Positions 2,103 through 53,282 of a stretch of DNA of 64,000 bases are shown here, piece after piece (positions within the stretch are counted from its first letter, which is position 1; each line of letters opens with the position of its first letter). The notes beneath the pieces were generated by a model that made no database searches, was not told the origin of the DNA, and was given only the letters and a program-made list of their open reading frames with translations. The position numbers and the translations under genes are program-made. Source of the DNA: Xestospongia bergquistia (Eukaryota > Porifera > Demospongiae > Haplosclerida > Petrosiidae); contig OZ014415.1 in assembly GCA_963965975.1 (NCBI GenBank), positions 6,019,001 to 6,083,000 on the forward strand. Direction: 5' to 3'.

Positions 2103-5100
2103 ATGGCTAAACCACTGCAAGGAGAATCATTCGGGCAGAAAAGACCCCCGCTGTACCAGATGATTAAAAATATTCTCAGAGAGTATCCCAGCGGACAAGT
2201 ATTCAATGTATAACTGTCTAGATATCAGTGTAGATGGAATGACAAACTATTAAAGATGATTTGAAGTAGTCAAAAGACAACATTAGATGACTAAGAACAT
2301 GCATAAATTGTAAATGTTTATATACCACTAGCTTAGCTTTAATAGTAGATTAGTACATATACCAATCTCTTTAATATCCCAATAACTGATTGTTTTAAAT
2401 GACTTTTCCATATAAGTCTTAATATAAGAGTCTACATAGTTGACCTCTGAAAGTGCACCATCATGGCGTCATCTTTATAAACTATTACAGGAAGTCATTC
2501 AAAATGCTGATGATGCTGGAGCTACTGAGGTCAATTTCTTCCTAGACTGCCGTCAATTACAGACTCTCCCACCTGGACTAGTGACAGATACTGAGAAACA
2601 TATTGAACTATCTCGGTTTTATGGTCCAGCCTTAATGTCTTTTAATAATGCACCTTTTAAGAAAGAAGACTGGGATAGTATACAAAGTCTACACCAGAGT
2701 GGTAAAGCTAAGAATCCACACAAAGTAGGAAAATTTGGAATTGGATTTAACTCTGTCTATCACATTACTGGTAAGTAGAGTTGTTCAAGGAAATATAATA
2801 AGATTCATGAGATTAAATTCCAGTTAAGTTAAAGGTGATGAATATTATTTCATTTGTATTCAGATCTTCCAGTAATTGTCAGTGAGGAGTACTGTGGATT
2901 CCTAGAGCCACAAGAAGATATATGGAAGGGTGAGTCTGGTAAAGGTTATTACTTAAAAGATCTATTAGCAAGTTGTCCAGAATCACTAACTCCTTATAAA
3001 GGAATCTGCGGTTTTTCTAAATCCTTTCATAGGCAAACACTTTTAAGATTTCCACTTCGTAACAAACCATCAAAGCTTTCCAAAGAACTCTATACTATAT
3101 CAAAGCTTCAAGTGTTACTAGAATCTCTTAAAGCTGAATTAAAATACATTTTACTTTTTCTTCGATCAGTTTGTTCCATTGAAGTGATAGAGATTTCTGT
3201 TCATAACACTCTTAATTCAGTGTTTAAAGTATGCGTTACTACTGATACTTACAATCAACACATAACTCAACAACAACAATTACTCAGTGATGTACAATCC
3301 ACTTTTATAATTGATTCACTGAGTAGTATGCGCAAAGTTATTAAAAGTAGTGATCACTTCAATATTGAAGTACATGATGATAGTAGTCACAGTAAACATG
3401 AATGGATAGTAGTTAATCAGGTTGGTAGTGAGGATACAGAGGTAATGCAATTAGCAGAGAAGCAGCATGTTTTGCCCTGGGTGGGAACAGCTTTTGAAGT
3501 CAGTAGTACACCATGTTGTGGTGGTCGTATATTTTGTGTTCTTCCTTTACCCATTGAAGACAGAGCTCCATTTAGTGTTCACATTAATGGAACTTTTGCT
3601 GTGAGTAGTAATCGTCGATCTCTCAAATGGGAAGCACAAGAAAGGAAAGATGAAGAAAGCACTTGGAACAAACTGTTAGTAAAAAAATGTCTGCCTTCTT
3701 GTTATATTGAGTTAATTTCACAGTTAATACAACTGTGTCCTAATAACTATACCCCTGTATATAGTTGTTGGCCAGATATAGTTCAAGTTAAAGGCACGCC
3801 TTGGGATGATATGTTAGAAACTTTTTATAGACAACTTCTCTATAGCAACAAAGTTTTGTACACTCCAGTTTTAGGAGGACAATGGATTAGTATTAGTGAA
3901 TCAATATTTGTAGATGAGAATGAGGTAGTTCCCCAAACTGTCAAAGAGTGTATTTTGAGATGCCAAGTAAAGCTAGTTGAAGTAGACAATTACCAAAGAA
4001 TGGCTTTATACCACTATTATGCCACCTATAAAACCAATTTAAATCCTTCAATAGTAAGAATGGAGCTTAAAAAGAATTCACGTGCCTATGAGTTTATGTC
4101 AAGAGAAGGTAAACTAGCTGTTCTTGACTACTGCCTCAGTGACCACAAGTATAATGACCTTTCTAGTCTTAAACTACTTCCATTGCTCAATGGAGACTTT
4201 GTACAGTTTACACAAACCAGTTATTACTCATATGGTACTACTACATCATATATTTGTAGTAGTAGTAGTCCACATACTCTTCTACCTGGTTTAGAGCATA
4301 TATTAGTCAGTGTTTATTCTGATAACCCAACTACTCATTCAAATTTACTTGAGCTTGCCAAAAGTGGTCAAACACAACTGAAAGTATTGGGTGTTCCTGA
4401 AATAGCTAACTTATTACCACAGTCTAATTCTGAGTCTTGGTCTAATGAACAACTTGCTTCTTTTTGGCAATGGCTACATGATAAAGAATTGCACTTATTC
4501 CATCAAAAGCAGATAGTACCAATAAAGTACTTATCAGGTCAATCTTCAGTAATGCCTTTAGCTAAAGAAGGTGGTGTAGTATATGTTCCTCCTTATTTCC
4601 CTGTATCTTCAATACTATTAACAGCTCTGGAGAAGTGTGGTATTAAACTAGCTAATGCTCGAGACTTTCCATATTTAGTTCATAATCATCTGACTCAATA
4701 TTTATACCAGTTTAATCCAGATGATATACTAGATGCAATGCAAGGCTTTAGTTTGGAAAATGTAAAGTTGTCTAGTAAAGAAGCAGAAACTTTACAAACA
4801 TTTCTATCATCTAGTACATTGTCTACTGTAGCTAGAGTTAATACAGTCTGTACATTACCTATATTTAGTGTTATTCAAGACACTACAGGTTGTCACTCTA
4901 TCAACTCTATTAAAACATCTTACTGTGATCATAAAGCTATTGCAGAAATTGAGTCTTTTGAGTTACAAAAAGACCTGCTTATCCTGGATCCTCTCACAAT
5001 TAGCAGAGATGGTAATGAAGTGAATCTGTTAAAACAGCTTTCTCAGTCTAAGCATGTTACTTTCATGAATGAAATAGAATATCTTGTACAAATTTCCTTT

Positions 5101-8100
5101 AATCAGATTAGAAACAACCAGTTCAATATTAGTAATGTGGTACCTTTTATGACAAGTATACTTGATAGCTTTGATAGTATGAGAAGGAAATATCCCAGCT
5201 TATTTGAGCAATTCAAAAATGCCATATCAACTTTGTCATTTATACCAGTCTCTTCATCAACAGTATTACAAGCTCCATGTAATCTTTTTGATCCTCAAGA
5301 TGTTATGTTAAAAGAGTTATTTAGAGACCAATCAGTATTTCTTGGACCTGAGTTTTCTTCTTATCTCTATGTTTTACGACAGTGTGGTTTAAAGTCTATT
5401 ACATCTATCACAGGGACAGATATATTACAGATTATAACAAGTATTCAGGTGTATTCAGAAACAGGTTTAGCTACATCTAATGATGTAAACATTTCTAGAG
5501 TAGTAGCAGTTTTTCACTATCTGAACAAGTACCCACAAGTCCTTAATGAAACATTACCTAAAAGACACAATAATCTACAAAATGCTTTAGTACTTCAAGC
5601 TCAAAGTTCTTGTTGGTTACCAATAGTTGGTGATCCTCCTGAAAACTATCCTACTTGTTTAAAGTGGAAGGGCTTTTTGTATCCTCAGAATTTAGCATCA
5701 GCTAGATATAACCCATTAGTAGTCTTATTACAAAGCATAAGCTTATCACAATTACCAATGATAGCTGGCTCACAAGCTATTTTTGTAGAAAATATACCAT
5801 CACAAATTGCCCAAACTCTTTGTAGCTCTCTCCAAATTATGGTAGCTGCAGTTGTAGCTCATTTTAAAGAGATTATCAACAATAAGGGTAAAATAGAGTC
5901 TGATGTATTAGATCAGTTATCATATCAGACCTACAGTTACCTTCAAAATAATATAGCATATTGTGACAAGAAGACTTTTGATGATATAGAGAATTGGGTA
6001 TGGGTGGAGAGTGAATCCACATTTATCAGCTCTAGTATGGTAGCTATTAAAAGTAATTCTACCTTCAGACAAAGTCTAGAGCCTTTTGTATTCACTTTAT
6101 CAAACAGATTACAAAAATTTAATGAGCTCTTTTCTAAATGTGGAATTCATCCACAGATTACTACAAATCATATACTTTCTGTACTCCAATCTATTAAAGA
6201 TAGACCAGATCAAATTAGTACAGAAGAAGCATGGTCATTAGTAAAGGCAATATTAGACTGGGTAGTAGATGATCCATCAAGAATGAATGATGGAAAATTA
6301 TTAGTACCAGTACAGAGTGACTCACTATATCCACAGCTTCAACCTATTGAGGATGTTGCCTATACAGATAACACAATGCTTCTTAATATTGCTATGACCT
6401 CAGATGAAGAGTATATGTTAGTTCATGATAGAGTAGCTCATCTTGCTCCACAACTTGGTCTAAGTCCTCTCAGTGATCATCTTGATATCACAGAGGATGT
6501 ATTTGAAGATGCTGGTCAACACGAACCTCTTATTATTCGTCTTAGTAATATCTTGAAGGAATACAAAGATGGTCTGACTATTATTAAAGAAATGATCCAA
6601 AATGCTGATGATGCTGAAGCCACAGAAGTCAACATTCTCTATGATGCTCGTCAACATACAACAGAAAAGCTCTTGTTTAAAGGAATGGCTGATAGTCACG
6701 GTCCAGCTTTAGTTGTTCATAATAACAGCACTTTTAGTGATGAAGATTTTGAAAACATCACCAAATTAGCTGGTGCTACAAAAGCTAACAAACCATTAAA
6801 GATTGGTAAATTTGGTGTTGGTTTTTGTTCAATATATCACATCACTGATGTCCCTTCATTTGTGAGTGGAGAGTGGCTTTATATATTTGATCCTACTCTC
6901 CAGTATCTTAAAGGCATAGTTCATAATGAGAACAGACCAGGTAAGAAGGTGAAGTACCTATCAAAGTTTGTATCTCAGTCTGAACAACTAGTACCATATG
7001 AAGGGTTGTTTGGTTTTAAAGGTTCTACTGTATACAATGGTACTATGTTTCGGTTTCCTTTTAGAAGAAGTCCCAGTCAAATTAGTTCTACACTCTACAA
7101 TGGGGACATAATATCACAACTCAGAAAAGACTTAACTGAAAATGGTTCTAAGTTACTACTGTTTTTACAACATGTAAAAAGAATTACATTTAGTTCAATT
7201 GACAATTATGGTACTGAACTAAAAGAGTCTATTGAAATAAACTCATTAAGTAGTCAAAAAGAAATTAAATTTGTCACAAACAATCAAAAAGATTGGGTAG
7301 AATATTGGTTAGTTTCAAACCACAATGAAGAGCTTCAGACACAAGATTATCAAATCCAATCAAGTACAGCATCTGTAGCCTGTCAACTTATTAAAGCTGA
7401 TGAACCTGATACCTTTAGCTGTAAACAGATAGAAGGGTCTGTATTTTGTTTTCTTCCATTAGCAGTACCTAGTACAGGACTACCTGTACATGTAAGTGCT
7501 AACTTTGCTGTTATGAGTAACAGACGTGGTATCTGGACTGGTTCATCTAGAATAGCTACTGATTCAAGAGAATGGTGGAACCAAAAGTTAATGGAAACTA
7601 CTATACCAAAGGCTTATTGTAGTTTATTGAATAGTCTACAAGTTATGTGTATATCAGGTCAACTTTTGAACTATGAGTTTTATTCTCTTTGGCCTTTGAA
7701 CACTAGATTACAATCAAAACATCCATGGAATATATTGAGTTCAACATTATACAAGATGATATCAGAGAATACTCTGTTTCATTCTGCTTCCATAAACAAA
7801 TGGTTTACATTAACTGAATCAAAGTTCATCTCTTCTAGTATATTCAATAAATTAGGCTTAGCAAATGATGAAATGCTTAGTTGTATTCACAAAGCTGTCT
7901 ATTTGCTCCAAATTTCAGTAGTTTTCTTGCCACACATTTATATGCAACAAATACCCCAGTATGACATAGCAATGATTGATGAAAATGACTTTGCAAGTAT
8001 GTTTTTTCCCAATATTGATTTCTTTAACTCAGAAGTTGATGTTCGAAATGAAATTTTATCACATATGTTATCAACTATTACAGTTGAACAGACGCAATCA

Positions 8101-11100
8101 AAACAAACATCAGTATTAAAACCACACCTTCAACAGTCTCCGTGTATTCCTGTGTCTCCACATGGTAAGAAGTTAAAACTAGCTAGTGAACTTGTTGATC
8201 CATTGGCATTACAAGATTTGTTTGATCCAGAGGATGAGATGTTTCCATTGCCAGATTTTTATAGCAACAGCTTAATTCGTCAAGCTATGTTGGATCTCGG
8301 TTTGATATCATCAAATTTACCTTACTGTATTATCAATGAGAGTGCTAAAACAATTAGTTCTCTCTTTTTTAAGGATAAATCTATTGCTCTTGTCAGAGTT
8401 AAGCTAATCATTAAAACCATTGAGGAAAAATCTGATAGTCCACTATTGTCTGAACAAAGCAACGATGCAGAAATTGAATTACTACAGAACATCCCATTTT
8501 TACCAGTTGTTTCAAAGCCAGAACACTACATATTACTCTGGAAAGGAGCAGGACGAATCTTAAGAAGTCCATCTCAAGTCATATGTATGGATATATCAAA
8601 AGCTGCAGTACTTGTAGGCTCACAGAGAGCCATAGTAAATACTAGAGATGTCAGTAATGGAGGATGTGGACATATTCCTGACAATGTACTTACTGTACTT
8701 GGTATTCCAACCAGACCATCATTAGATGATGTACTGCTACATTTCCAGTGTCTTCTTGATACCTATCAACCAATGATGTGTCAAAATTCTAAAGTAGTTG
8801 ATGAAATATCTCGACTTTGTTGTAACATATATGAATTTATTGATGATGAAATCAGAAAAAGAATGGAGCCTGGAAGTGATGGAAGTCATTCTTCTGTTAT
8901 GAGGAAGGCTCCTTCATCTTCAACAAAAATTGAAGAAAAATTGATGGAATTTCAAACCAAACCATTTGTTTGGACTGAAACTTGTTTTGCTGTACCTGAT
9001 AATGTTGCTAAACACTGGAAGAAGAATGGACCATACCTTTTTAAGCTTCCTGATATACTTTCAGAACGTAAAAATTTACTCAGTGTATTGCAACTTAAAA
9101 ACAGCTTTAATGCAGAAAAATTATTAAATACATTTCGATGCATACTTGATGACCATCACGCAGAACTGCCTTCAGATTATTATGAGCTTGTAGACTGCAT
9201 AATATTAGAACTAAATTCAGCACCTGGAGAGATAACAGAATTTGATGAAGTTATTCTTGTTGATGACCATTATATACTCAGACCAGCTAAAGAACTATCA
9301 TTCAATGATGCATCTTGGCTTCCACCTCCTAAAAATTGTAAGTATGTCCATTCTAAGTTAATAAGAGAAAAAGCTCTTTCTTTCGGTGTAAAACTTACAA
9401 GTAGCAAATATCTTGAAAACTTTGTTTCTCCACTGTCACAACATTTTGCAGGCTTAGAATTTGGTCAAATAGAGGAGCTTAGTCAAAGAATTAAGAATAT
9501 TATACATGATTATCCACTAGATGTCACTTTTCTTAAAGAGTTATTACAAAATGCTGATGATGCTAAGGCTACAAAAATGTGTGTCATACTTGACAAGAGA
9601 ACACATGGGAAAGACCAAATACTTTCTGAAAGATGGGCAGAGCTCCAAGGTCCTGCATTATTAGTCTGGAACGACAAAGACTTCACTGATAAAGATCTAG
9701 AGGGTATACAAAAACTAGGTCTTGGGTCAAAACGAGGTGATACAGAGTCCATTGGTCAGTTTGGTATTGGTTTTAATGTGGTATATCATGTAACAGATTG
9801 TCCTAGCTTTATCACACGAGGTAACATTCTCTGTGTGTTTGATCCTCATTGTTGCTATGTTCCTGGAGCTGATAAAAAGTGTCCTGGAAGAAGATATGAT
9901 GTTGATGACAACTTTTGGAAGAATATGTCTGATCTACAAAGTGCATACTTGCAAGATTCCCTTCCTGAACAATTATCATATGTTAAGAAAGGATCACTCT
10001 TTCGGTTTCCATTGAGATCCACAACCTCTGAAATTTTGGAGGAGGAGATATTAGCAGAGCCTTTAACTGCTATAATCATGGAGAAGAAACTTGTGAACTG
10101 GGTACATCAAATTAAAGATGCCCTCATTTTCTTGAATTGCATTACTCAGCTCGAATTCTATATCATTGATGCTGACACTAATGAATTCCAATGTAAACAT
10201 AAGTACAAAGTACATCTAGATGACTCATCAATTGAAGAACGTAGCAGTTTTTACCAAATTATTAGTAACTTTAAGCACTCAATGCAACCTCGAGTTGTCA
10301 CATATCCTCTGACTATGATAACAAGTAGTGATGAGGAGAAATGGCTAATACAGCAAGGTGTTGGAGACCTCCTAAATCCTTCTAACAAATGGACATACAT
10401 CAATCAGACTTCACCCACACACTGCATAGCAGCTCCAATGCAGTATAATGAATATTTTAGTGGTAAAGTGTTCTGCTTTCTTCCTCTTCCAGTTCAAACT
10501 GGTCTTCCTGTCCACATTAATGGTCAGTTTGTTCTCAGTAGCCATCGCTCTCTCTGGAATAGTGACAATGGAGATGATGATCAAACAAAGTGGAATTTAT
10601 CTCTCTTTCAAGCTATTGCTTCTTCTTATGTCCATTTCTTGTCACAAGCTAGAGACTACTATGTTCATCCAGAAGGTTATCAATCACTTGATGATCTATA
10701 TTCTGCAGTTAATTGTTACTACAATCTATTACCATTTTATTTTAGAGAACCAGCAGAGAAAACAAAGTTAGTCACATCAAACAGGTCTCAAGGTACAATA
10801 TTGGACCAGAGAGTATTTTCCCAAAAACTAATTGCAAGCAATACTGCTCAAACTAATTTAGACAAAAGCAATGAGTTTCACTGCTTAATTTTCCAAAGGT
10901 TATGGTCCACCAATGTTCCTGTACTAGCATCTGAAGTTTTTCCCAGTTCACAAGAAGCTCTGTACTTTGTTAAATGGCATTTACTCCACAATGATGATAA
11001 TCCTATTAACCAAGCGTATTTCAAAACTGAGATGAACAAAGAATTAGAGCAAATCCTAAGAAATATTGGGATGATATTGACTTGTGCTCCACCTGAACTC

Positions 11101-14100
11101 TATAACCATCTGAAAGAATTCAACCCAGCCATAACAAATACTGAGTCTGTTTTCAATTACTACACTACATTTTATTCTCATATCAATAGTAGTTACCCTA
11201 TCTCAATAGAAGAGACTCCTTTTAACTCAATAGAGAATTTCTGTATATTTCTAAAACATCTGCTGAAGGTTTATGTTAAAGACTCAGTAGCACAATGTTT
11301 ATTTCCACGTTGTCCTTTTGGTTATCCACTACTGTTGACAGCTGATGGTAAATTGAGATTGTTTAATGAACACGACAAGGTTTTGTGTAGCAAGTTCTCT
11401 CATCTCTTTACAAAGTCAGCTTCATTGTTTCTACATCCAAAGATATTGGATAAATTTCCCAGCTTATGTATCAATTATTTTCTATCTGCCCAAGATGTGT
11501 CATTCAGTATCATTGATAATATTATGAGAGAAAATTATAGTCCTTTCCTTCAGAATTCTGAGGTAATCAATTACAAATCTGTTCTTGATAACGATGCATT
11601 AAAAGAATTATGGTTATGTATGACAAAAGATCAAATCTTCGAACACCATCAAAATGAACTTCTTAAGTCATGGGCATTAATACTAAGTTCAAGTGAAACT
11701 CTTTACAACACATGTTCTCCAATTCTTCCTCTTGTGATTCCATCAGATGTTACTGAGTTACAATTCACAGAAGCTTTTCAAAAGCTTTTTTCTCTTGGTA
11801 TTCCTATCTTGAACTCAGAAATCAGCAAAAAATATTGTCTTCGGATGACCAATCATGATAGAGTTCTTGCTGTGTTGTTTCATATGCATGTCAGAAAAGA
11901 CATACTGAATGATTTAAAAGATCCAAAGGAGACAATTCACATTTTATTTGAGTACTTCAGCAGGATTAACTTTAGACATGATTATCAGAGTGTTATTCAT
12001 ATCACATCATTACCTTTATTTGAGACCATAAGTGGAGATTTAACAAGTATTTGTGGTAAGAAAGTTTGTCTTTGGCCAGCAGATGGATTTTGTAAAGCTG
12101 GCTATGAAAAGTGGGCGCCAATAGATAGGACAGTCTTTCTTGATCCCAGAGGTACATGGAGAAGCCTTTGCAATGATATTTCAAATCTTGGGGGTGAGGA
12201 ACTAGACAGGAAAAATATTTATGCTGACATAATTTTTCCAATATTTCACCAATTGTTCTCAAAGGAAAGGGAGGAGCACTTGAGGTACATCAAAGATGAA
12301 ATGTATCAAGATATTGTATATGAAAGTGAAAAAGGAGAAAATGGTGCAAGCATATTTTTAAATAAATTAAAAGCATTAAGATGCCTAGAATCAAAGAATG
12401 AAACTCTTTATTCAATTGCAAACTTTTCAGACCATACAGCGTCCATTTTCACATTATTTCCTAGTCATTTTGTGTTTGTTCCTGAGGAATATAAGAAAGA
12501 TGAGTGGTTAGAATTTTTACGTGGACTTGGACTCAGAGTTACCACTACTTGTGAAGAATTCAAAACATTTTGTGAACTTGTTTCACAAGGCCAACACTCT
12601 GATCTTGTGAAAGTATCCGAAGTCCTTGTCAACTATTTATTTTCAAAGTCAGCACAAGAATGGCATGATAATGATAGTTACCTTGCTGAAATTGGCAACA
12701 TCAGTTTTGTTCAAGTAGATCCTTTAAATAGCTTAAAATGGATCAAAGCTCCTTGCCAACCATCTTGTCATATTTCACAACAAAATGTTGGCCTGACTAA
12801 GCTGAATGAAGCTGTTATATATGATAGTGCACCTTTAGTATGGACAGTTAAACCAGTAGTGTCTTTACCAAATATGGATTATCTCAAGCAACAAGAGTAT
12901 GATAACTTCCTCAACAAACTTGGAATTACAACAAATCCAGAAGTTAATGATGTCTACACAAACATTCTCAATGTTTCTAAAACAGGTTTAGCAAATTTCA
13001 AACTTTTCAACAAGTATGACCCAAAGTACATTTGTGATATCAAAGATCAAGACATCCTGGCAATTACTGATGTCATAGTTAAGAGCCTAAAGTATCTCTT
13101 TGAGAGGAAAACTAACGATCTACTACAGAATCTTCAGATGATTCCTTGTATTCCTGTCCACGCTAATATTTCTACTACTGAATGCTATATAATACAGCCA
13201 GTTCTTGTAACACCCATACAAGTGGTGAGGTACCTATCACTAGATGATAAAGACTTGTTTCCATATCTTCATAGTCTACCAACCTGCTTGAATATTATCA
13301 ATGAAGAACTTGACATTATGGGAGTGTGTCAAAATATCAGTATTACAAACATACAACATTTACTGAAAACAATGTATTTACAATTTAATGATAGTGAACT
13401 TGATCCAAATAGTGAAGCTTATGTGCAAAAAGCTGTCACGAAACTTTATGTACTTCTGAAAGAGATATCTAAACCTCAAGTGATTAAGCCTCTATACTTA
13501 CCAGCATTGCTTGCCTCAAGAAATAACCGATATTCTTTGAAAGATTCCACTAGTCTTGTCTTCATTGACTCAAATCGTTATCAAGATCAAGATTTGACTT
13601 TTATTAATACACCTTACTCACTGTTTCAACTTCCATCTGATACTAAAATGTCTGTTGCCTCCAAACAGTCAATGGTCATATTACCTACTATTGCTAATAA
13701 AAAGAATATTTGTCTGCAACTACCAAATGAGGTCAGGCCTAAAGGTCTTTCCCTTTGCTGTACTGAAAAAATCCTTATTCGTTGTGAATGTCAAGATAAT
13801 AGTCCACTCAAATTTCATTTGCAGAAATTAAAAAATCTTGTACCTTCATTAAATGAGGTACTGCCAAAAATATTGTCAGCTCATTATGAAAGTGCTATGA
13901 TGACAGTTGATGACACAATTATTAAATTCACTTTAACTCTTACAGAATTGATCAAATCTGTACCTGTGGTTGTTATTCAAGAACTTTGGTCAAAGATTTT
14001 TCTAATGTCTGAATATCACATTGGCAGTATGAAAGTTCAATTTTTGCTTCAGAATGATGATGATAATTATACTCTTTTTGTTGATGTTGAATCATCTAGT

Positions 14101-14361
14101 GGTTATTCTTTACAAAGAGAACTAGCAAGAACTCTCTGCATTGAAGTGGCTCGTATTCATAAAGTAGATTTAACGACCTACTTAAAGTTTGTAACACCAG
14201 TTTGTGAATGTTTACAAATTCAATGTCTTAATGACTTAAATCCAATTCTTGAAAAGTACATCATAGAAGATCAAGGTAATACTATCTTTGTTGGCAGGAT
14301 GGAAAGAGAGGAATATGTACCTCATGGCATTTTACTTTGTATTAGGAATGCATTAAATTAA
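2103..14361 (+). CDS. Gene A: sacsin-like giant protein, three Hsp90-type ATPase repeat regions (sacsin body)
   Basis: Exons: 2103-2207, 2491-2770 and a giant exon from 2864. Without further splicing the giant exon ends at TAA 14359-14361, giving 3960 residues. Three GHKL/Hsp90-like ATPase units are visible. Unit 1 has NADDA at residues 40-44 and GKFGIGF from 115. Unit 2 has NADDA from 1375 and GKFGVGF from 1443. Unit 3 has NADDA from 2358 and GQFGIGF from 2426. Sacsin is known as a chaperone-like scaffold for filaments and organelles; that role here is inferred. There is no N-terminal ubiquitin-like domain. Unlike B and C, no J or HEPN domain follows. A strong donor at 14276 (CAAG|GTAATA, phase 1) instead joins in frame to the ZU5-CARD exons, so the TAA may be used only in an unspliced isoform. 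The exon 1 donor reads AAT|GTATAA where the paralogs have AAG|GTATAA. Confidence 0.9.
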
Positions 14362-14411
14362 ACACGATGAATGTCTATGTATGATTTAAACAGAAATATA
14401 ATTTAAATTAG

Positions 14412-16295
14412 GTTTACATGATCTACAAGACAAGGTAAAAGTCTCTACTAAATTCATTGATAAGTGTATACAATGTGACTATTGGAATTACACTAACATA
14501 TCAGGTAACCTGTACCTATAATATGTAATACTTTACTAATGAACTGTTAATATTGTATAGACTCATTTGAAGGAATGATGACAGTAGGAAAGAAGCTCTG
14601 TCTGTTCAATGCTCATACTGAACATGAGTTAATATTGGAAGAATGTGGATTAAGACTTGTCATCCCTGGTGAGGTCATTATACCAATAGAGTCTGTATAT
14701 GAAGTAGCTGCTCAAGGTTTGTGGGGAACAGGCAAATTTGTGTTCCCTGAAGGTACCACACTTATCAGTGGAGTATGTTATATATCAGTATCCAGTTTCT
14801 CTGAGCTCAATAAACCAGTTACTGTTGAGTTAATGCATTGTGCTCATATAACTGACGAGAGACAGACACAATATTTGTCCTTTGTTGCTGCTAAATCTGG
14901 TCCACCTTTTAAGTTTGACTACCTACCTGGAGGATCATTCTCCCCTGAGTCTCAATGTGGCACTATATCTCTCAAGCAGTTCTCGTTGTTGGCTATAGTG
15001 CTCATTATTGCTGGCAGTACAGCTGCTGCAGTTGGTGGTGTTGTTGGTGGAGCTGTAGTTGGAGGTGGTGCAACTGCTGTGGTAGTTGGTGCTGCTTTAG
15101 TAGCACATCTTGTAGGAGGTCTTGGTAAGAAATGATCACTTATATTATATTAATTAATTATTCTTATAATATTAGGTGATGATGTCAAATATCCTAACTG
15201 TTACTATCAAGCTTATATCTTCTATAAACGTATGGGTCCTAAGAAATGGCATATGAATTTAGCTGTTACACAAGATACCCAGTATTCCAAAGTAATAAAA
15301 TTATAAAAGATTCATGTATAACTACATACATTGCCTCCATAGTGCCTTCAATATTTGTCATCTAGTGCTGAATTTGGAGAAAAGCATTCTCATTTTCGAT
15401 TTCGTTTTGCCACTAACACACTTCCATCAAGAGAACAAAAGGAAATGTCTGAGAGGGAGAGTGATACAGAAATGGTGTTAAAGCTTTCAGGATTCCCTGC
15501 TGATGATGTAATGTCTACAGGTTGGAGAGTACAACCTCTACATATACCTTCTATAGTAAGTGAATAATGTAATGTTATAATCAAAATACTTGTGATATTT
15601 AATTTATTTATAGATCAACAAAAGAGATGTTGATGATTATAATCAATCAAAGAGTGCTAGTCCTCCATATATTCCTGTACTAATATGTGCTTATCCTAAC
15701 ACAAGTGACTTTGAAGAACAACTACAATGTCCTCTAACTATTGAAGGTATTGAAGTAACTGATAACAAAAGTCAAACATCAGCTAACAACAATCAACCTA
15801 AAGTTGTCCTTGATGTATCACTGGATGACTATGGTAAGTATCTTGAAAATATATCACAATGTAAACATTTAATTCAGGTTCACCCACTACTGACAATGAA
15901 GATACAAGTAGAGGACTAGAGTCAACTACAGGTTTGTTAATAACATTTGAAGGCATTAATTTTTCCTCTTTTCTACAGCAATTGAAGAGTCTGACCCATC
16001 AGAAATATTTCGTACTCACATTTCTGATCTCAGCAAAGCTTTTGCCTCGTGTCTGAATGAAATCACTGATAGTCTTTTCTCTAAGAGGCTAATAGGACAA
16101 AGTGTACTGCAATTAATGACTACAGAAGGTCAATCTAATTATCAGAAAGCTAGCAAAGTAGTCCATGAACTATACAGTCAATTACAAGCTCAAAGATATC
16201 CAGAGCTATATCTTACTAAGATTTGTGATGTACTGTTAAAACAAGATGATCAAAGACTAAAAGATATTGCTAACAATATTAAAGATAAGTTATAA
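14412..16295 (+). CDS. ZU5-like/CARD-like C-terminal tail, predicted to be spliced to gene A
   Basis: Inferred exons: 14412-14504, 14561-15124, 15176-15291, 15343-15555, 15614-15833, 15878-15931, 15979-16295. All have AG/GT borders and compatible phases. Joined to gene A's giant exon cut at 14275, the total is 13374 nt, a multiple of three (4457 residues plus TAA 16293-16295). The second exon carries a ZU5-like module (GLRLVIPG..., then a SGVCYISVSS...KPVTVELMHCA pattern). A 45-residue hydrophobic Gly/Ala-rich stretch and a charged linker follow. The last exon encodes a helical CARD-like domain, with features such as EITDSLFSKRLIGQSVL, ASKVVHELYSQL and KICDVLLKQDDQRL. ZU5 and CARD are typical of animal adaptor and signalling proteins. 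The alternative is an independent gene with its own 5' end, but I find no first exon with an ATG in the 130 bases before it. Confidence 0.72.
14985..15124 (+). other. Hydrophobic glycine/alanine-rich segment in the gene A tail
   Basis: Follows the ZU5-like module directly (fusion residues about 4105-4151). It has an initial LLAIVLIIAG run, then repeated GGVVGG / GGAVVGGG / VVVGAAL motifs with small-xxx-small spacing and no charged residue until the end. It could be a membrane-inserting or glycine-zipper segment, or a low-complexity insertion. The truncated tail copy at 19757-20504 does not include this exon. Confidence 0.6.
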
Positions 16296-19756: not shown

Positions 19757-20504
19757 ATTAACAAGAATGATGTTGATGACTTTCATGCTTCAAAGAGTGC
19801 AAATTCTCCTTATATTCCTGTATTAATAGTTGCTGATCCAGATTGTAGCAATTTTAAAGAACAGCTGCAATATCCTCTTAGCATTGAAGGGATTGAAGTC
19901 ACTACTGCTGATAGTAGTCAACCTAAAATAGTCCTTTATAGAACATATACTCACAGTAAGTCTAATGATCTGGAATAGTAATATATTGAATTCTCAGTTA
20001 TTAGCATATGTTAGGGTTATATCATAGTACTTCTTTTCATGCAGGTCCATCAATTGCTTACAAAGAACAATCAGATAGTATTTCACAGTCAACATCAGAT
20101 CTGTTAAAATGGCATAGATGTATAATTTTAAAAAGAAATATTTTATTTAATATGCTTTGTCATTGTCTTTTATTCTATGCACAGCACTTGACAAAGAACT
20201 CAATTCATCAGAGATATTCCAATCTTACAGTGCTGATCTTATTGCATCTATTGCTTCTGATCTTGAATGGATAACTGACAGACTGTTTGCTGAGAATATA
20301 ATAGGACAATCTATAGTACATTTTACAACTGTGGGAAGTGAGAGTAATTACTCTAAAGCAAGAAAAGTAGTCCATGAACTATATAGTCAGTTACAAGCTC
20401 ACAGTGAACCAAAGCAATATCTTGGTAAGATTTGTCATGTACTATTAAAACAAGATGATCAAAGACTAAAAGAAATTGCTAAAAATATTAAAGAGAAGTT
20501 ATAA
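19757..20504 (+). CDS. 5'-incomplete second copy of the ZU5-CARD tail (linker and CARD-like domain)
   Basis: Exons 19757-19955, 20045-20119 (less certain 3' end) and 20185-20504 correspond to the last three exons of the gene A tail, with the same phases and intact reading frame. The linker keeps the IEGIEVT and SPYIPVL motifs. The CARD-like domain keeps RLFAENIIGQSIV, KARKVVHELYSQLQAH and KICHVLLKQDDQRL and ends at TAA 20502-20504. There is no in-frame ATG in the first exon and a TAG stands just before it. The ZU5-like exon is absent from the preceding 1.5 kb. It is either a truncated duplicate or the 3' part of a gene whose 5' exons I cannot find. Confidence 0.6.
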
Positions 20505-39803: not shown

Positions 39804-42800
39804 ATGGCTAGTCCACTACAGGGAGAATCATTCGGGCAGAAGAGGCCTCCGCTTTACCAGATGATTAAAAATATTCTCAGAGAGTATCCCAGCGGACAAG
39901 TATTCAAGGTATAACTGTCTAGATATCAGTGTGGATGGAATGACAAAGTATTAAAAACGATTTGAAGTAGTCAAAAGACGACATTAGATGACTAAGAACA
40001 TGCATAAATTGTAAATGTATACATGTCTATTAGTTTAGCTTTAATAGTAGATTAGTACATATACCAATGTCCCAATAATTGAGTCTTTTAAATGACTTTT
40101 CTATATAAGTCTTAATATAAGAGTCTACATAGTTGATCTCTGAAAGTGCACCATCATGGCGTCATCTTTATAAACTATTACAGGAAGTCATTCAAAATGC
40201 TGATGATGCTGGAGCTACTGAGGTCAAATTCTTCCTGGACTGCCGTCAATTACAAACCCTCCCACCTGGACTAGTGACAGATACTGAGAAACATGTTGAA
40301 CTATCTCGGTTTTATGGTCCAGCCTTAATGTCTTTTAATAATGCACCTTTTAAGAAAGAAGACTGGGATAGTATACAAAGTCTACACCAGAGTGGTAAAG
40401 CTAAGAATCCACACAAAGTAGGAAAATTTGGAATTGGATTCAACTCTGTCTATCACATTACTGGTAAGTACAGTTGTTCATGGAAATATAATAAGATTCA
40501 TAAAGTGAAGTTCCAGTAAAGTTAAACTTCATGATTATTTCATTTGTATTCAGATCTTCCAGTAATTGTCAGTGAGGACTACTGTGGATTCCTAGAGCCA
40601 CAAGAAGATATATGGAAGGGTGAGTCTGGTAAAGGCTATTACTTAAAAAATCTATTAGCAAATTGTCCAGAAACACTAGCTCCTTATAAAGGCATCTGCT
40701 GTTTTTCTAAATCCTTTTATGGACAAACACTTTTAAGATTTCCACTTCGTAACAAACCATCAAAGCTTTCCAAAGAACTCTATACTATATCAAAGCTTCA
40801 AGTGTTACTAGAATCTCTTAAAGCTGAAGCAAAATACATTTTACTTTTTCTTCGATCAGTTTGTTCCATTGAAGTGATAGAGATTTCTGTCCATAACACT
40901 CTTAAGTCAATGTTTAAAGTAAGTGTTGATACTGATACTTACATGCAACGCATAATTCAGCAACAACAATTACTCAGTGATGTACAATCCACTTTTACAA
41001 TTGATTCACTGAGCAGTGTGCGCAAAGTTATTAAAAGTAGTGATCACTTCAACATTGAAGTACATGATGATAGTAGTCACAATAAACATGAATGGATAGT
41101 AGTTAATCAGGTTGGTAGTGAGGACATAGAGGTAATGCAATTAGCAGAGAAGCAGCATGTTTTGCCGTGGGTAGGAACAGCTTTTGAAGTCAGTAGTACA
41201 CCATGTTGTGGTGGTCGTATATTTTGTATTCTTCCTTTACCCATTGAAGACATAGCTCCATTTAGTATTCACATTAATGGAACTTTTGCTGTGAGTAGTA
41301 ATCGTCGATCTCTCAAATGGGAAGCACAAGAAAGGAAAGATGATGAAGAAAGTAGTTGGAACAAATTGCTAGTAAAAAAATGTCTGCCTTCTTGTTATGT
41401 TGAGTTAGTTTCACAGTTAATACAAGTATGTCCTAGTAATAACTATACTACTGTATATAGTTGTTGGCCAGATATAGTTCAAGTTGAAGGCACACCTTGG
41501 GATGATATGTTAGAGCCTTTTTATAGGCAACTTCTCTATAGTAATAAAGTTTTGTACACTCCAGTTTTTGGAGGACAATGGATTAGCATTAGTGAATCAA
41601 TATTTGTAGATGAGAATGAAGTAGTTCCTCAACCTGTCAAAGAGTGTATTTTGAGATGCCAAGTAAAGCTAGTTGAAGTAGACCTTAACCAAATGAGGGC
41701 TTTACAGCACTATTATGCCACATATAAAACTCTTTTAAATCCTTCAATGGTAAGGATGGAGCTTAAGAAGAATTCACGTGCCTATGAGTTTATGTCAAGA
41801 CAAGGTAAACTAGCTGTTCTTGACTACTGCCTCAGTGACCACAAGTATAATGACCTTTCTGGTCTTAAACTACTTCCATTGCTCAATGGAGACTTTGTAC
41901 AGTTTACACAAACCAGTCATTACTCATATGGTACTACTACATTATATATTTGTAGTAGTAGTACTCCACATACACTTCTACCTTGTTTAGAGCATATATT
42001 AGTCAGTGTTTATTCTGATAACCCAATTACTCATTCAAATTTAACAAAGGTTGCCAAAAGTAGTCATACACAACTGAAAGTATTGGGTGTTTCTGAAGTA
42101 GCCATGTTATTACAACAGTCTAATCCTACCTTTTGGTCAGATAAGCAACTTGCTTTTTTTTGGCAATGGCTTCAGAATAAAGAATTGTGCTTATTCTGTC
42201 AAAAGGAGATTGTACCAATAAGGCACTTGTCAGGCCTTACTACAATAATGCCTTTAGCTAAACAAGGTGGTGTAGTATATGTTCCTCCTTACTTCCCTAT
42301 ATCTTCAATATTAGTAACAGCTCTGGAGAAGTGTGGTATTAAACTAGCTAATGCTCGAGACTTTCCCTATTTAGTTCATAATCATCTGACTAAATATTTA
42401 TACCAGTTTAATCCAGATGATATATTAGATGCAATGCAAGACTTTAGTTTGGGAAACGTAAAACTGTCCAGTAAAGAAGCAGAAGCTTTACAAACATTTC
42501 TATCATCTAGTACATTGTCTACAGTAGCTAGAGTTAATACAGTCTGTACATTACCTATATTTAGTGTCATTCAAGACACAGGAAGTCATCACTCTATCAA
42601 CTCTATTAAGACACTATATTATGGAAATACAGCTATTGCAGAGAGTAGGTCATTTGATTTGAGAATAGACCTACTTTCCGCCACTCCTTTAGTTATTAGC
42701 AGATATAGCAATGACACAAATATATTAGTAAAGCTTTCCAAACATGTTAAGTTAATGAATGAAATAGAGTATCTTCTACAGGTATCCTTTAATCAGATTA

Positions 42801-42876
42801 GAAACAGCCAGTTCAATATTAGTAATGTGGTACCTTTTATGACAAGTATACTTGATAGCTTTGATAGTATGAGAAG

Positions 42877-42881
42877 AAAAA
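42877..42881 (+). other. Frameshift lesion in copy C (+1 A)
   Basis: Copy C has AGA AAA A TAT TTC where A and D have AGG AAA TAT CCC. The extra base in a five-A run shifts the frame and ends it 15 bases later. Confidence 0.85.
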
Positions 42882-45800
42882 TATTTCAGCTTATTTGAGC
42901 AATTCAAAAATGCCATATCAACTTTGCCATTTATACCAGTCTCTTCATCAACATTATTACAAGCTCCATGTAATCTTTTTGATCCTCGAGATGTTATGTT
43001 AAAAGAGTTATTTAGAGACCAATCAGTATTTCCTGGCCCTGAGTTTTCTTCTTATCTCTATGTTTTACGACAGTGTGGTTTAAAGTCTATTACCTCTATT
43101 ACAGCAGCAGATATACTACAGATTATAACAAGTGTTCAGGAGTATTCAGGAACAGGTTTAGCTACATCTAGTGATGTAAACATTTCTAGAATAGTAGCAG
43201 TTTTTCACTATCTGAACAAGTACCCACAAGCACTTAATGAAAGAGTTGTTAGTAGTGGAAGACATTATAATCTACAAACAGCTTTAATCCATCAGTTCCA
43301 AAATTGTTGCTGGTTACCAGTAGTTAGTGATCCTCCTCAAGACTACCCTGGTTGCTTACAATGGGTAGGCAGTTCCTTTAGTCAAACATTAACGTCAATG
43401 AAATGTACTCCACTAATAGTCCTATCACAAAGCACATGCTCATCACAATTACCAATGATAGCAGGCTCAAAAGCAATTTTTGTAGAAAATGTACCATCAC
43501 AAATTGCCCAATGCCTTTGTAGTTCTTCTCAAATTATAGTAGGTGAAGTTGTAGCTCATTTTAAAGAGATAATCAAAAATGAGGATAAAATAGAGTCGGA
43601 TGTATTAGATCAGTTATCATATCAGACCTACAGTTACCTTCAAAATAATATAGCTTATTGTGATAAGAAGACCTTTGATGATATAGAGAATTGGGTATGG
43701 GTGGAGAGCAAATCCACATTTATCAGCTCTAGTATGGTAGCTATTAGAAGTAATCCTACCTTCAGACAAAGTCTAGAGCCTTTTGTGTTTACTGTATCAA
43801 ACAGATCTCAAAAATTTAAGAAACTCTTTTCTAAATGTGGAATTCATCCACTAATTACTACAAATCATATACTTTCTGTACTCCAATATATTAAAGATAG
43901 ACCAGATCAAATTAGTACAGAAGAAGCATGGTCATTAGTAAAGGCAATATTAGACTGGGTAGTAGATGATCCATCAAGAATGAATGATGGGGAATTGTTA
44001 GTACCAGTACAGAGTGACTCATCTTATCCACAGCTTCAACCTATTGAGGTGGTTTCATACACAGATAATGAAATGCTTCTTAGCATTGCTATGACCTCAG
44101 ATGAAGAATATATGTTAGTTCATGATAGAGTAGCCCATCTTGCTCCACAACTTGGTCTAAGTCCTCTCAGTGATCATCTTGATATCACAGAGGATGTATT
44201 TGAAGATGCTGGTCAACATGAACCTCTTATCACTCGTCTTAGTAATATCTTGAAGGAATACAAAGATGGTCTGACTATTGTTAAAGAAATGATCCAAAAT
44301 GCTGATGATGCTGAAGCCACAGAAGTCAACATTCTCTATGATGCTCGTCACCATACAACAGAAAAGCTTTTGTTTAAAGGAATGGCTGATAGTCATGGTC
44401 CAGCTTTAGTTGTTCATAACAATAGCACTTTTAGTGATGAAGATTTTGAAAATATCACCAAATTAGCTGGTGCTACAAAAGCTAACAAACCATTAAAGAT
44501 TGGTAAATTTGGTGTTGGTTTTTGTTCAGTATATCACATCACTGATGTCCCTTCATTTGTGAGTGGAGAGTGGCTTTATATATTTGACCCTACTCTCCAG
44601 TATCTTAAAGGCATAGTTCGTAATGAGAACAGACCAGGTAAGAAGGTGAAGTGCTTAGCAAAGTTTGTATCTCAGTCTCAACAACTAGTACCATATGAAG
44701 GTTTGTTTGGTTTTAAAGGTTCTATTGTATACAATGGTACTATGTTTCGTTTTCCTTTTAGAAGAAGTTCCAGTCAAATTAGTTCTACAGTCTACAATGA
44801 GCACATGATATCAAAATTGAGGAGAGAATTAGCTGAAAATGGTTCAAAGCTGTTACTGTTTTTACAGCATGTAAAAAGAATTACATTTAGTTCAATTGAT
44901 AGGTACAGTAGTAAGCCAAAGCTTGAAGTATCAATTGAAATGAGTTCATTAAGTAGTCAAAAAGAAATTAAATACATTGTGACTAAGAAATCCAAGCAAA
45001 AAGATCTTATTGAATATTGGTTAGTTTCAAACCACAAAGAAGAGCTTCAGACACAAGATTATCAAATGCATTCAAGCACAGCATCTGTTGCCTGTCAACT
45101 TATTAAAGCTGATGAACCTGATACCTTTAGCTGTAAACAGATAAAAGGGTCTGTATTTTGTTTTCTTCCATTAGCAGTACCTAGTACAGGTCTACCTGTA
45201 CATGTAAGTGCTAACTTTGCTGTTACGAGTAACAGACGTGGTATCTGGACTGGTTCATCTGAAATGGCTACTGATTCAAGAGAATTTTGGAACCAAAAGT
45301 TAATGGAAACTACTATACCAAAGGCTTATTGTAGTTTATTGAATACTCTACAAGTTATGTGTATATCAGGTCAACTTTTGAACTATGAGTTTTATTCTCT
45401 TTGGCCTTTGAACACTAGATTACAATCAAGATATCCATGGGAGAGTATGAACTCAACATTGTATGAGATGATATCAGAGAATACTCTTGTTCATTCTACT
45501 TCTACAAACAAGTGGTTAACACTAGCAGAGTCTAAGTTCATCTCTCCTGGTCTATTTAATAAACCAGGCTTAACAAATGATGACATATTTAGTTGCATTT
45601 TTAAAGCTGTTAATATGCTCCAAATCTCAGTAGTTTTCTTGCCTCGTCTTTATATGCATCAACTACAACAACAACATGACATAGAGATGATTTATGAAAA
45701 TGACTTTGCAAATATGTTTTTTCCCAATATTGATTTCTTTAACTCAGCAGTTGATGTTCGAAATGACATTTTATCACTTATGTTATCAACTATTGCTGTT

Positions 45801-45926
45801 GAACAAACACAATCAAAACAAATCTCAGTATTAAAAGCACATCTTCAAAATAATCCATGTATTCCTGTTTCTCCACAAGGTAAGAAGTTAAAACTAGCTA
45901 GTGAACTTGTTGATCCATTGGCATTA

Positions 45927-45929
45927 TGA
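45927..45929 (+). other. Nonsense codon in copy C
   Basis: In the block encoding LVDPLALQDLFDPEDEMF in A and B, the Q codon CAA is TGA here. Both sides remain in the same frame. Confidence 0.9.
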
Positions 45930-48900
45930 GATTTGTTTGATCCAGAGGATGAGATGTTTCCATTGTCAGACTTTTATAGCAACAGCTTAATTCGTCAAGC
46001 TATGTTGGATCTTGGTTTGATATCATCAAATTTACCTTACTGTATTATCATTGAGAGTGCTAAAACAATTGCTTTTCTATTTGCTAATGATAACTCTAAT
46101 GCTCTTGCCAGAATTAAGCTAATTATTAAATCCATTGAGAAAAAAACTGATGATGTGTCTGAATATAACAAGAAAGCAGAAATGGAAACACTTACAAATA
46201 TTCATTTTCTTCCAATTGTTTCAAAACCAGATCACTACATTTTGCCTTGGAAAGGAGAAGAACATCATTTATTAAGTCCGTCTCAAGTCATATGTATGAA
46301 TATATCAAAAGCTACAGCACTTGTAGGCTCACAGAAAGCCATAGTAAATACTAGAGATGTCAGACATGGAGGATGTGGACGTATTCCTGACAGTGTACTT
46401 ACTGTACTGGGTATTCCAACCAGACCATCATTAGATGACGTACTGCTACATTTCCAGTGTCTTCTTGATACCTTTCAACCAATGATGTGTCAAAACTCTA
46501 AAGTAGTTGATGAAATATCTCGACTTTGTCGTAACATATATGAATTTTTGGATGATGAAATTAAGTTTGAAAAAAAGCGAACTGAGACTCCATTACACTT
46601 TGTTGCAACTCAACGTTTTTCTATTACTACAAAAGTACCTTCAATGTCAACATATGTTGAAGAAAAATTGACAGAATTTCAAACCAAACCATTTATTTGG
46701 ACTGGTACTTGTTTTGCTGTACCAGATAATGTCGCTAAACACTGGAAGAAGAATGGACCATACCTTTTTAAGCTTCCTGATATACTTTCAGAACGTAAAC
46801 TTTTAGTCAGTGCATTGCAAGTTAAAGACAGCTTTAATGCAGAAAAATTATTAAATACTTTTCAACGCATGCTTGATGACCATCAAGCAGAACTACCTTC
46901 AGAATATTATGAGCTTGTAGACTGTATCATATTAGAACTAAATTCAGCACCTGGAGAGGTAAGAGAACTTGATCAAGTCATTCTTGTTGATAAAGATTAT
47001 ACACTCAGACCAGTTAAAGAACTATCATTCAATGATGCACCTTGGCTTCCCGCTCCTGAAGACTGTAACTATGTCCATTCTAAGTTAATAAGAGAAAAAG
47101 CTCTTTCTTTTGGTGTAGTACCTACAAGTAACAAGTTTCTTGACAAGTTTGTTTCTCCACGGTCACAACACTTTGCAGGCTCAGAATTTGGACAAAGAGA
47201 GGAGCTCACACAGAGGATCAAGAATATTCTACAAGATTATCCACTAGATGTCACTTTTCTTAAAGAATTATTACAAAATGCTGATGATGCTAAGGCTACC
47301 AAAGTGTGTGTCATACTTGACAAGAGAACACATGGAAAAAACCGAATACTTTCTTCTGAATGGGCAAAGCTCCAAGGTCCTGCACTATTGATCTGGAATG
47401 ACAAAGACTTCACTGATAAAGATCTAGAGGGTATACAAAAACTAGGTCTTGGGTCAAAACGAGGTGATACAGAATCCATTGGTCAGTTTGGTATTGGTTT
47501 TAATGTGGTATATCATGTAACAGATTGTCCTAGCTTTATCACACGAGGTAACATCCTCTGTGTGTTTGATCCTCATTGTTGCTATGTTCCTGGAGCTAAT
47601 CCATTACATCCTGGACGACGATATGATAATCTTGATAGCAACTTTTGGACTAATATGTCCGATCTTCAAAGTGCATACTTGCTAGATAACTTACCAAATC
47701 ATCCTTCATATCTTAAAGAAGGTTCTCTCTTTCGTTTCCCATTAAGGTCTACAAAAGAGCAAGTTATGAACTCAGGTATTGTAGAGAAGAAAGTATCAAG
47801 TGAACCACTCACAGCTGATATAATGGAGAAGAAATTGAACAAGTGGGTACCTCAAATTGAAGATGCTCTTCTTTTCCTCAATCACATCACTCAGTTTGAC
47901 TTCTATGTCATTAGTGACAAACACAAGAGCAGTTTCAAACTTAGAGCTAGTTACATTGTTTCTATTAATGAGCATGCTTTGGTTAGTCGCAGTGACTATC
48001 AGTCTCATTTAAGTCAATTTAAAGAGTCATATGAGTCACATGTGGTGACATATCCATTGACAGTTTCTAGTAAGATAGACAAGAGCATGGTAGAATTATC
48101 ACTATCAAGTCGTAATCCTTTCATTCAGACAGAGAAAGAGTGGCTAATTCAACAAGGAGTGGGAGATTTAGATAACAGTGAACAAAATTGGCAATTTATA
48201 AACCAAGTATTACCAAAACATGGTATAGCAGTGCCTTTAAAACCTTCTCAATTCTTTCATTCCAAAGTATTTTGTTTTCTTCCTTTACCAATTGAGTCTA
48301 ATCTTCCAGTTCATATTAATGGTCAATTTGTCCTTGGCACTAACCGACGTTCTCTCTGGAATAGTGATAATGAAGACAGTAAAATGAGATGGAATAATGA
48401 ACTCATTGAAGCAATAGCATCTTCTTATGTTCACTTTCTAAACAAAGCAAGACATTATATAGTCAAAATAGAAGGTTACAGTTGTCCTCAACAATTTTAT
48501 GATGCTGTGAATTGGTACTATAGTCTCTTTCCATATTGGATGGCTGCAAAGGGAAAAACATCAGCAATATCAATGTCTAAACATGATAAAGAATCAAAAC
48601 AGTCTATGACAAGAAGTTTGAGCTCTAATTGGCTAATGTTGGCAAAGTCTTTTTTTATAAAGTTATGGTCCAAAAATGTTGAAGTTCTTATTTCTGAAGT
48701 GTATACAAATGATCAGAAAAGACAGGTTATTAGAGGCCAATGGTATCCTCTCCACAATGACAATAACCCATTTCAACAGGCTTACTTTCAACCATGGGAT
48801 AAAGATATTAAACCAGTTTTAAGTAAACTTGGCATGATTTTAACATGTGCTCCAAATCATCTGCATAAACATTTGAAGGAGTTTAAACCATCAATAGCTA

Positions 48901-51900: not shown

Positions 51901-53282
51901 GTCTGTGGAAAGAAGTAGCTCAGTCTCTCTGTATTGAGGTTGGACGTATGCTTAATATCAACCCTTTGATCTTCTTTGAGTTCAGACAAATATTAGCATC
52001 AGATTTCTTGGTTGTGCAGAGTACTGAAGACCTCCAATCATTAGCTATAGTTGTTGAAGACCTGGAGCTTCTCGAAGATGAACTCAATGATGACTATGTT
52101 CCTAAAATTGGTCATCCTATTCCATCTCAACTTATTGCAATGTTGGACAGTGATATTAATCATATATATCGTCCACAAGAATTAATTGGTTATGAAGTGG
52201 TAGAGAATTACTTTGTATGGGCTATAGTTCTATATCCTGCCCAAATATCACAATCTGATGATGACCCAATAATGAAGAAATATGTCATTGCTTACAATCA
52301 GCAGGATGAAGAAGGTGAAGTTGTATCTGCTTTAGATATTTACAAGTTTGTAGATAAAGATACTGAAGTTGAAGGAGAAGGAACTGAGTTAGTTCTAATC
52401 AATAGTGCTACTGCTGCCCTACAACAGGCTAAGGACAGCAAAAGATTAAGAGACCTGAAAAGAAAAATTTGTAAAGAATTGCTGTTGATATGGAAGTTGC
52501 CAACAGAAGAAGAGAAGAAGAAAGCAATTCGAAGAATGTACATTAAATACCATCCAGACAAGGTTAATCCAACTGATAAGGATCTCTTTGAAGAGGCATT
52601 TAAGTTTATGCTCAGGCAAATTGACCGATTGGAGGCAGGACTACCATTAGAAGAACCTGATGATGAAATATCTCCCGATGATGAGCCTTTCTATGAACGG
52701 TCTAGTTGGCGACAATATTATGCAGCATGGGATAACAATATACATAGACCAACTACTAGTAGTAGTGGAGGAAGAATGGGAAGATCATATTTTTGTGGTG
52801 GTGGTAGTGGTGGTATAAACTTGTTTACATCACTCCATCCTACACCAAATCAAGTAGAAGCAGAACGATGGTTACGTCAGGCTAATTCTGATCTAAAAGC
52901 TATGTGTGTTCTCAAGAATGAAGTTCATAATGAGCCTATATCATGTCAAATTATGTTCATGGCACATGAAGTAGCTGAAAAGGCCCTAAAGGCTGGTATG
53001 TATGCACTAATTGGCATTAATTCTAATAGTGAAAGTTTAAAGACACATAACCTCACAAATCATGCACGAGCAATCTCCTCTGAAAAGCCAGGTCAGCTAG
53101 TAACACTACCACAACTTGCTACTTCGATGGAGTCCTTCTATCTTAACACTCGGTTCCCTAATCTCTATCCTTGTCCAACAGCTCCTGTTGATATCTATAA
53201 ACCAGACGAGGCAATTGTGGCATTTGATTATGCAAAGACAATTTTTGGACTAGTCGAAAAACTAGTTAATAAACAGTTGTGA

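What the first reader, a model, noticed from the sequence alone, without database searches (positions are those of the whole stretch)
2103..16295. Predicted sacsin-ZU5-CARD fusion gene
Seen: gene A's giant exon has a strong donor at 14276 (phase 1). The AG-bounded segments 14412-14504 and 14561-15124, and five more, join in frame to a CARD-like end. The total of 13374 nt is exactly divisible by three, and the segments downstream of 14275 have no workable first exon of their own. Known: sacsin normally ends in J and HEPN domains, while ZU5 and CARD belong to death-fold signalling adaptors. Inference: an Hsp90-type ATPase scaffold has been wired to a CARD signalling output, an architecture reminiscent of large NTPase-CARD innate sensors such as NLRs. 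I know of no described sacsin of this kind.
Basis: partly seen in the sequence, partly recalled or inferred. Interest (0 to 1): 0.9.

Follow-up and report, generated by a model that had tools for sequence, protein, structure and literature searches.

The report
Sacsin fused to ZU5-CARD signalling tail
In what is probably a sponge genome, a giant chaperone-like gene (sacsin) appears to have lost its usual end and gained, through a DNA rearrangement, an end that resembles that of animal immune-sensor proteins, although no RNA evidence was available to prove that the two parts are made as one protein.

Summary
Gene A keeps sacsin repeats but shows no J or HEPN domain. Its tail holds ZU5, a Gly/Ala-rich stretch, a UPA-like region and a CARD-like fold. 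A Kelch-Death-ZU5-CARD gene of the same genome has a 92% identical ZU5. The first tail intron is chimeric: about 20 nt like sacsin, then that gene's intron, which holds the TAA at 14361. A second locus, A2, has the same junction. Among 21 listed sacsin 3' ends, ZU5 follows closely only these two; 18 have HEPN. Between A and A2 the 28 codons after the donor look unconstrained, ZU5 constrained. The kind is not wholly new: sponge sacsin-DEATH fusions are in print (PMC3710099) and two Amphimedon gene models carry sacsin-HEPN-ZU5. Those use another ZU5 branch and another join, so sponges probably made such fusions at least twice. Transcription and function are untested.

The parts
2103..2207 (+). 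exon 1: start of sacsin (MAKPLQGESFGQKRPPLYQ...)
   Evidence: in-frame join; a similar start in gene B at 22542 read directly
2491..2770 (+). exon 2: first sacsin ATPase region
   Evidence: SACS match of the own genome at C5:6021479-6021769, i.e. window 2479-2769
2864..14275 (+). giant exon 3: three SACS stretches; no J or HEPN
   Evidence: PF25794 6.5e-165, three stretches; no DnaJ or HEPN at E<=0.01; neighbours B and C show HEPN and a weak DnaJ match
14276..14411 (+). chimeric intron: about 14276-14295 sacsin-like, about 14296-14411 like the intron of a Kelch-Death-ZU5-CARD gene (L034); holds TAA 14359-14361
   Evidence: score 104 against L034, best of 300 letter shuffles 54; against sacsin P0012 62 (best shuffle 59)
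14412..14504 (+). tail exon 1 (LHDLQDK...KCIQCDYWNYTNIS), an internal exon in the parent family
   Evidence: 27 of 31 residues in A2
14561..15124 (+). tail exon 2: ZU5 domain, F-S pair at 14980-14985, then Gly/Ala-rich hydrophobic stretch (about 14986-15124)
15176..15291 (+). tail exon 3, UPA-like region
   Evidence: aligned to the P0029 C-terminus by BLASTP
15343..15555 (+). tail exon 4, UPA-like region
15614..15833 (+). tail exon 5, UPA-like region
   Evidence: 77% in A2
15878..15931 (+). tail exon 6, linker
15979..16295 (+). tail exon 7, CARD-like domain and stop
19757..20501 (+). second, partial tail copy (UPA-like part and CARD, no ZU5 match) upstream of gene B
   Evidence: 62% and 59% identity; 80% DNA identity over 730 columns including 3' flank

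Best explanation
Gene A is a chimeric gene. A recombination joined the giant exon of a tandem-array sacsin, ahead of its J domain, to a phase-1 intron of a Kelch-coiled coil-Death-ZU5-UPA-CARD gene. The sacsin side supplies a phase-1 donor (14276) that can be spliced to the borrowed acceptor (14412), so that J-HEPN is replaced by ZU5-UPA-CARD. Shown: the joined frame, the likeness of tail and intron to the Kelch-Death-ZU5-CARD gene, a second locus with the same junction, and constraint on ZU5. Inferred: that the spliced transcript is made. Inferred further, by analogy with NLRP1 and CARD8: the sacsin ATPase scaffold senses misfolded or foreign protein, ZU5-UPA holds the CARD in check, and release lets the CARD nucleate a death-fold signalling complex.
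For: Joined frame 13,374 nt. A close tail relative in the own genome is a Kelch-Death-ZU5-CARD gene (Death 2.3e-8, Kelch 1.2e-5; ZU5 92%) in which tail exon 1 is internal. Intron 14276-14411 matches that gene's intron from about 14296. A2 at C5:6158000 keeps donor, tail exon 1, ZU5, the UPA-like exons and linker, in frame, with its own last exon. Of 21 sacsin 3' ends, 2 have a ZU5 hit about 200 bp downstream and both lack HEPN; 18 have HEPN within 3 kb and no listed same-strand ZU5 within 14 kb downstream; 1 (C5:5939669) has neither (from hits). dN/dS between A and A2: ZU5 0.052/0.333, tail exons 1-6 0.170/0.482, 28 codons after the donor 0.224/0.069. CARD and ZU5 folds.
Confidence: 0.78

Rival explanations
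1. Two units side by side: a J-less sacsin ending at TAA 14361, and an orphan ZU5-CARD fragment without promoter or first exon that is decaying or not expressed.
For: Open reading runs to TAA 14361; the database ORFs end there; a partial tail copy exists at 19757-20501.
Against: TAA lies in borrowed intron DNA; codons before it lack constraint between A and A2, while ZU5 has it; tail exons are open in A and A2.
Confidence: 0.15
2. Both forms are made: a truncated sacsin by intron retention or early polyadenylation, and the full fusion, regulated by splicing.
For: Post-donor reading open in five of five A-type proteins; intron of 136 nt against 44-58 nt for the other tail introns (coordinates); ATTAAA at 14352 and 14357.
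Against: No constraint seen on the post-donor codons between A and A2.
Confidence: 0.3
3. Inherited from a common sponge ancestor with the Amphimedon sacsin-HEPN-ZU5 proteins, followed by deletion of J-HEPN.
For: Same domain set in Amphimedon P0029 and P0020.
Against: ZU5 of A is 92% like L034 and about 65% like Amphimedon Kelch-family proteins but 35% like the Amphimedon sacsin ZU5s, which group with another branch, L006, at support 1.000 (nine sequences); intron DNA still matches L034.
Confidence: 0.07

Closest known systems
Amphimedon queenslandica sacsin-like isoform X2 (P0029, 4979 aa) and sacsin-like, partial (P0020), both predicted gene models
   Same: Sacsin repeats joined C-terminally to ZU5 (Pfam 17.1 and 17.8 bits, under cut-off 21; phmmer with the tail 2.7e-21 and 2.4e-19 among 101 proteins); P0029 also has a further C-terminal stretch alignable to the UPA-CARD part of gene A (23% over 527 columns) and an N-terminal Death domain (2.9e-5)
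   Different: HEPN kept in both, ZU5 follows it; different ZU5 branch; gene A joins before J
Sponge sacsin-DEATH fusions of the HEPN survey of 2013 (PMC3710099, passages)
   Same: Sacsin with a death-fold adaptor in a sponge
   Different: N-terminal DEATH is described for certain animals; a ZU5 or CARD tail is not mentioned in the passages seen
NLRP1 and CARD8 (FIIND-CARD; PMC3210808, passages)
   Same: ZU5-UPA then CARD at the C-terminus; F-S at the ZU5 end
   Different: Sacsin in place of their N-terminal parts; no counterpart of CARD8 His-270 seen; hydrophobic Gly/Ala-rich stretch between ZU5 and UPA-like region
Kelch-coiled coil-Death-ZU5-UPA-CARD gene of this genome (L034) and Kelch-ZU5 proteins of Amphimedon (P0104 by its listed Pfam domains)
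   Same: Likely parent family of the tail; ZU5 92% and 66% identical
   Different: Kelch front instead of sacsin

Membership tests
canonical sacsin | SACS (Hsp90-type ATPase) repeats | tested here: met
   PF25794 6.5e-165, three stretches
canonical sacsin | J domain | tested here: not met
   no DnaJ match in gene A at E<=0.01, weak matches in B and C; the A-B alignment ends at residue 3830 of B, DnaJ match begins at 3981
canonical sacsin | C-terminal HEPN | tested here: not met
   none in gene A; no HEPN hit within 3 kb downstream
canonical sacsin | N-terminal ubiquitin-like domain (vertebrates) | not tested
   -
FIIND-CARD proteins (NLRP1, CARD8) | ZU5 fold | tested here: met
FIIND-CARD proteins (NLRP1, CARD8) | UPA after ZU5 | tested here: inconclusive
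   no Pfam match; position and alignment to P0029 only; no model made
FIIND-CARD proteins (NLRP1, CARD8) | C-terminal CARD | tested here: met
FIIND-CARD proteins (NLRP1, CARD8) | F/S pair at the ZU5 end (SF/S in CARD8 and NLRP1, HF/S in PIDD) | tested here: met
   F144 and S145 of the exon ORF are each kept in 90% or more of 61 sequences; residue before them is Q in gene A; cleavage itself untested
FIIND-CARD proteins (NLRP1, CARD8) | histidine needed for cleavage (CARD8 His-270) | tested here: inconclusive
   no His seen at a similar distance before F144 in gene A; judged by eye, no residue superposition
NLR | NACHT-LRR | tested here: not met
   no NACHT or LRR match in gene A

The most novel reading that the evidence does not exclude
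Sponges have turned sacsin chaperones into CARD-signalling sensors at least twice, by independent fusions of ZU5-UPA-CARD cassettes drawn from a large Kelch-Death-ZU5-CARD receptor-like family; gene A works like NLRP1 or CARD8, with an Hsp90-type protein-quality scaffold as the sensing part.
Probability: 0.35. Interest if true: 0.8.

Novelty: new variant of a known kind. Interest (0 to 1): 0.58.

Why it matters
It catches domain shuffling with the breakpoint still visible in an intron, links a giant chaperone to an inflammasome-type output, and, with the Amphimedon proteins, suggests that sponges repeatedly wire protein-quality scaffolds to death-fold signalling. [quoted passage not shown]

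Tried and rejected
Rejected: that 14276-14361 is decayed pre-J sacsin coding (my first reading of the alignment); the L034 intron fits better (104 against 62), though the first 20 or so bases do look like sacsin. Rejected: the acceptor at 15366. Rejected: taking the J-less locus at C5:5939669 for A2; it matches P0012, is truncated, and has no ZU5 hit nearby. The value -6.04 for the P0012 site comes from a mis-registered 9-mer and is not used. Sequence profiles for the CARD and a profile search of PDB sequences with the ZU5 alignment (2 matches, E 0.12 and 0.19, neither a ZU5 entry by name) gave nothing useful. BLASTP of the A and A2 last exons against five Amphimedon proteins gave E 0.11 and more. 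Self-cleavage stays open. Contigs matched by length (672981, 456529, 223266 each list an A-type sacsin and at least one ZU5 ORF) are suggestive only; adjacency there was not seen. Paper searches bearing on 'not in print': (CC-licensed PMC papers only; I saw listings, and passages of four papers: PMC3710099, PMC8195603, PMC3210808, PMC6208332, the last without sacsin or ZU5). One search scored 150 of 292 candidates, and searches list matches above a threshold, so a distant ZU5 beside a HEPN sacsin could be missed.

Full report
Observation. Ten segments join to 13,374 nt with one terminal stop. The 3,839-codon open frame carries three SACS stretches but neither DnaJ nor HEPN at E<=0.01; genes B and C in the same window carry HEPN and a weak DnaJ match. 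The local alignment of A with B ends at residue 3799 of the A frame, 12 residues before the donor, and 3830 of B, about 150 residues before the DnaJ match of B.

Origin of the tail. The genome (146 Mb, 21 contigs) holds a large ZU5 family: 150 matches from 150 scored of 292 candidates, some of them pieces of one exon. One of the closest copies, C5:6648079, was read with its surroundings (L034). Its exons read as Kelch, coiled coil, Death, ZU5, UPA-like, CARD on the minus strand; Death 2.3e-8, Kelch 1.2e-5. Its ZU5 is 92% identical to that of gene A over 146 residues. The exon before ZU5, which in gene A is the first tail exon, lies there downstream of the Death exon. In Amphimedon the same motif (KSIQCDYW) sits at the end of a coiled-coil-like stretch. 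The tail therefore looks like the 3' part of a larger gene, cut inside an intron.

The junction. The intron 14276-14411 aligns from about 14296 nearly to its end with the intron of L034, score 104, best of 300 letter shuffles 54; the A2 intron scores 112, without shuffles of its own. Against sacsin P0012 the A intron scores 62 (best shuffle 59), which reflects mainly its first 20 or so bases. TAA 14359-14361, the alternative end of the sacsin, lies in the borrowed part.

Second locus. A2 (C5:6158000, L033) has an identical donor region, tail exon 1 (27 of 31 residues), ZU5 (90%), the UPA-like exons and linker, with one acceptor moved by six bases and the frame kept. Its last exon differs from that of A and was not modelled. 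Among 21 sacsin 3' ends found in the genome, a ZU5 hit lies 193 and 201 bp downstream of A and A2 only; 18 have HEPN within 3 kb; one has neither. This table rests on the listed hits and could miss distant ZU5s.

Constraint. Between A and A2 (Nei-Gojobori): ZU5 0.052/0.333; tail exons 1-6 0.170/0.482; sacsin 3' end 0.070/0.130; the 28 codons after the donor 0.224/0.069 (nine amino-acid changes, one silent). The last is small, and P0001 and P0002 do not differ there at all (28 of 28).

Mechanism. By the logic of NLRP1 and CARD8 (PMC3210808, passages; release of the CARD part by degradation of the front is recalled) ZU5-UPA would hold the CARD until release. The F-S pair at the end of ZU5 is kept in 90% or more of 61 sequences. 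The residue before F is Q in gene A; the same paper reports that S295Q did not impair CARD8 cleavage. A counterpart of His-270 is not apparent by eye. So restraint and release are plausible, self-cleavage is open, and the input sensed by sacsin is conjecture.

Known things. Sacsin-DEATH in Amphimedon: PMC3710099 (passages). Sacsin with TRADD-N, and UPA-ZU5 with TRADD-N: PMC8195603 (passages). Amphimedon gene models P0029 and P0020 put ZU5 after HEPN. Their ZU5s are 35% identical to that of A and group with another own-genome gene, L006 (support 1.000), whereas A, A2 and L034 group with the Amphimedon Kelch family (nine sequences). Two separate fusions is the simplest reading. Nothing that I saw in the listings or in the passages of four papers describes a sacsin whose J-HEPN is replaced by ZU5-CARD; only CC-licensed PMC papers are held. 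The host is inferred to be a sponge because the named relatives of the tail are all Amphimedon (5 of 5); no species name was established.

Noticed in passing
window 40133-53282: Gene C is broken: the sacsin frame shifts near 42880 and meets a stop at 45927-45929; pseudogene or sequence error.
   Followed up: no
window 19757-20501: Partial tail copy (UPA-like part and CARD, no ZU5 match) between A and B, with 80% identical 3' flank.
   Followed up: partly
G000:C5 about 5.93-6.20 Mb: Tandem array of sacsin genes in one orientation, some truncated; four more on C13 with frames of 4441-4490 codons.
   Followed up: partly
G000: About 150 ZU5-family matches in the genome (some are pieces of one exon, and only 150 of 292 candidates were scored): a large expansion to which the Kelch-Death-ZU5-CARD gene belongs.
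   Followed up: partly
L033:2476-2804: A2 ends in a last exon unlike that of A but of similar length (329 against 317 nt), as if the CARD had been exchanged.
   Followed up: partly
window 14986-15124: Gly/Ala-rich hydrophobic stretch between ZU5 and the UPA-like region, variable among family members; possible membrane segment.
   Followed up: no
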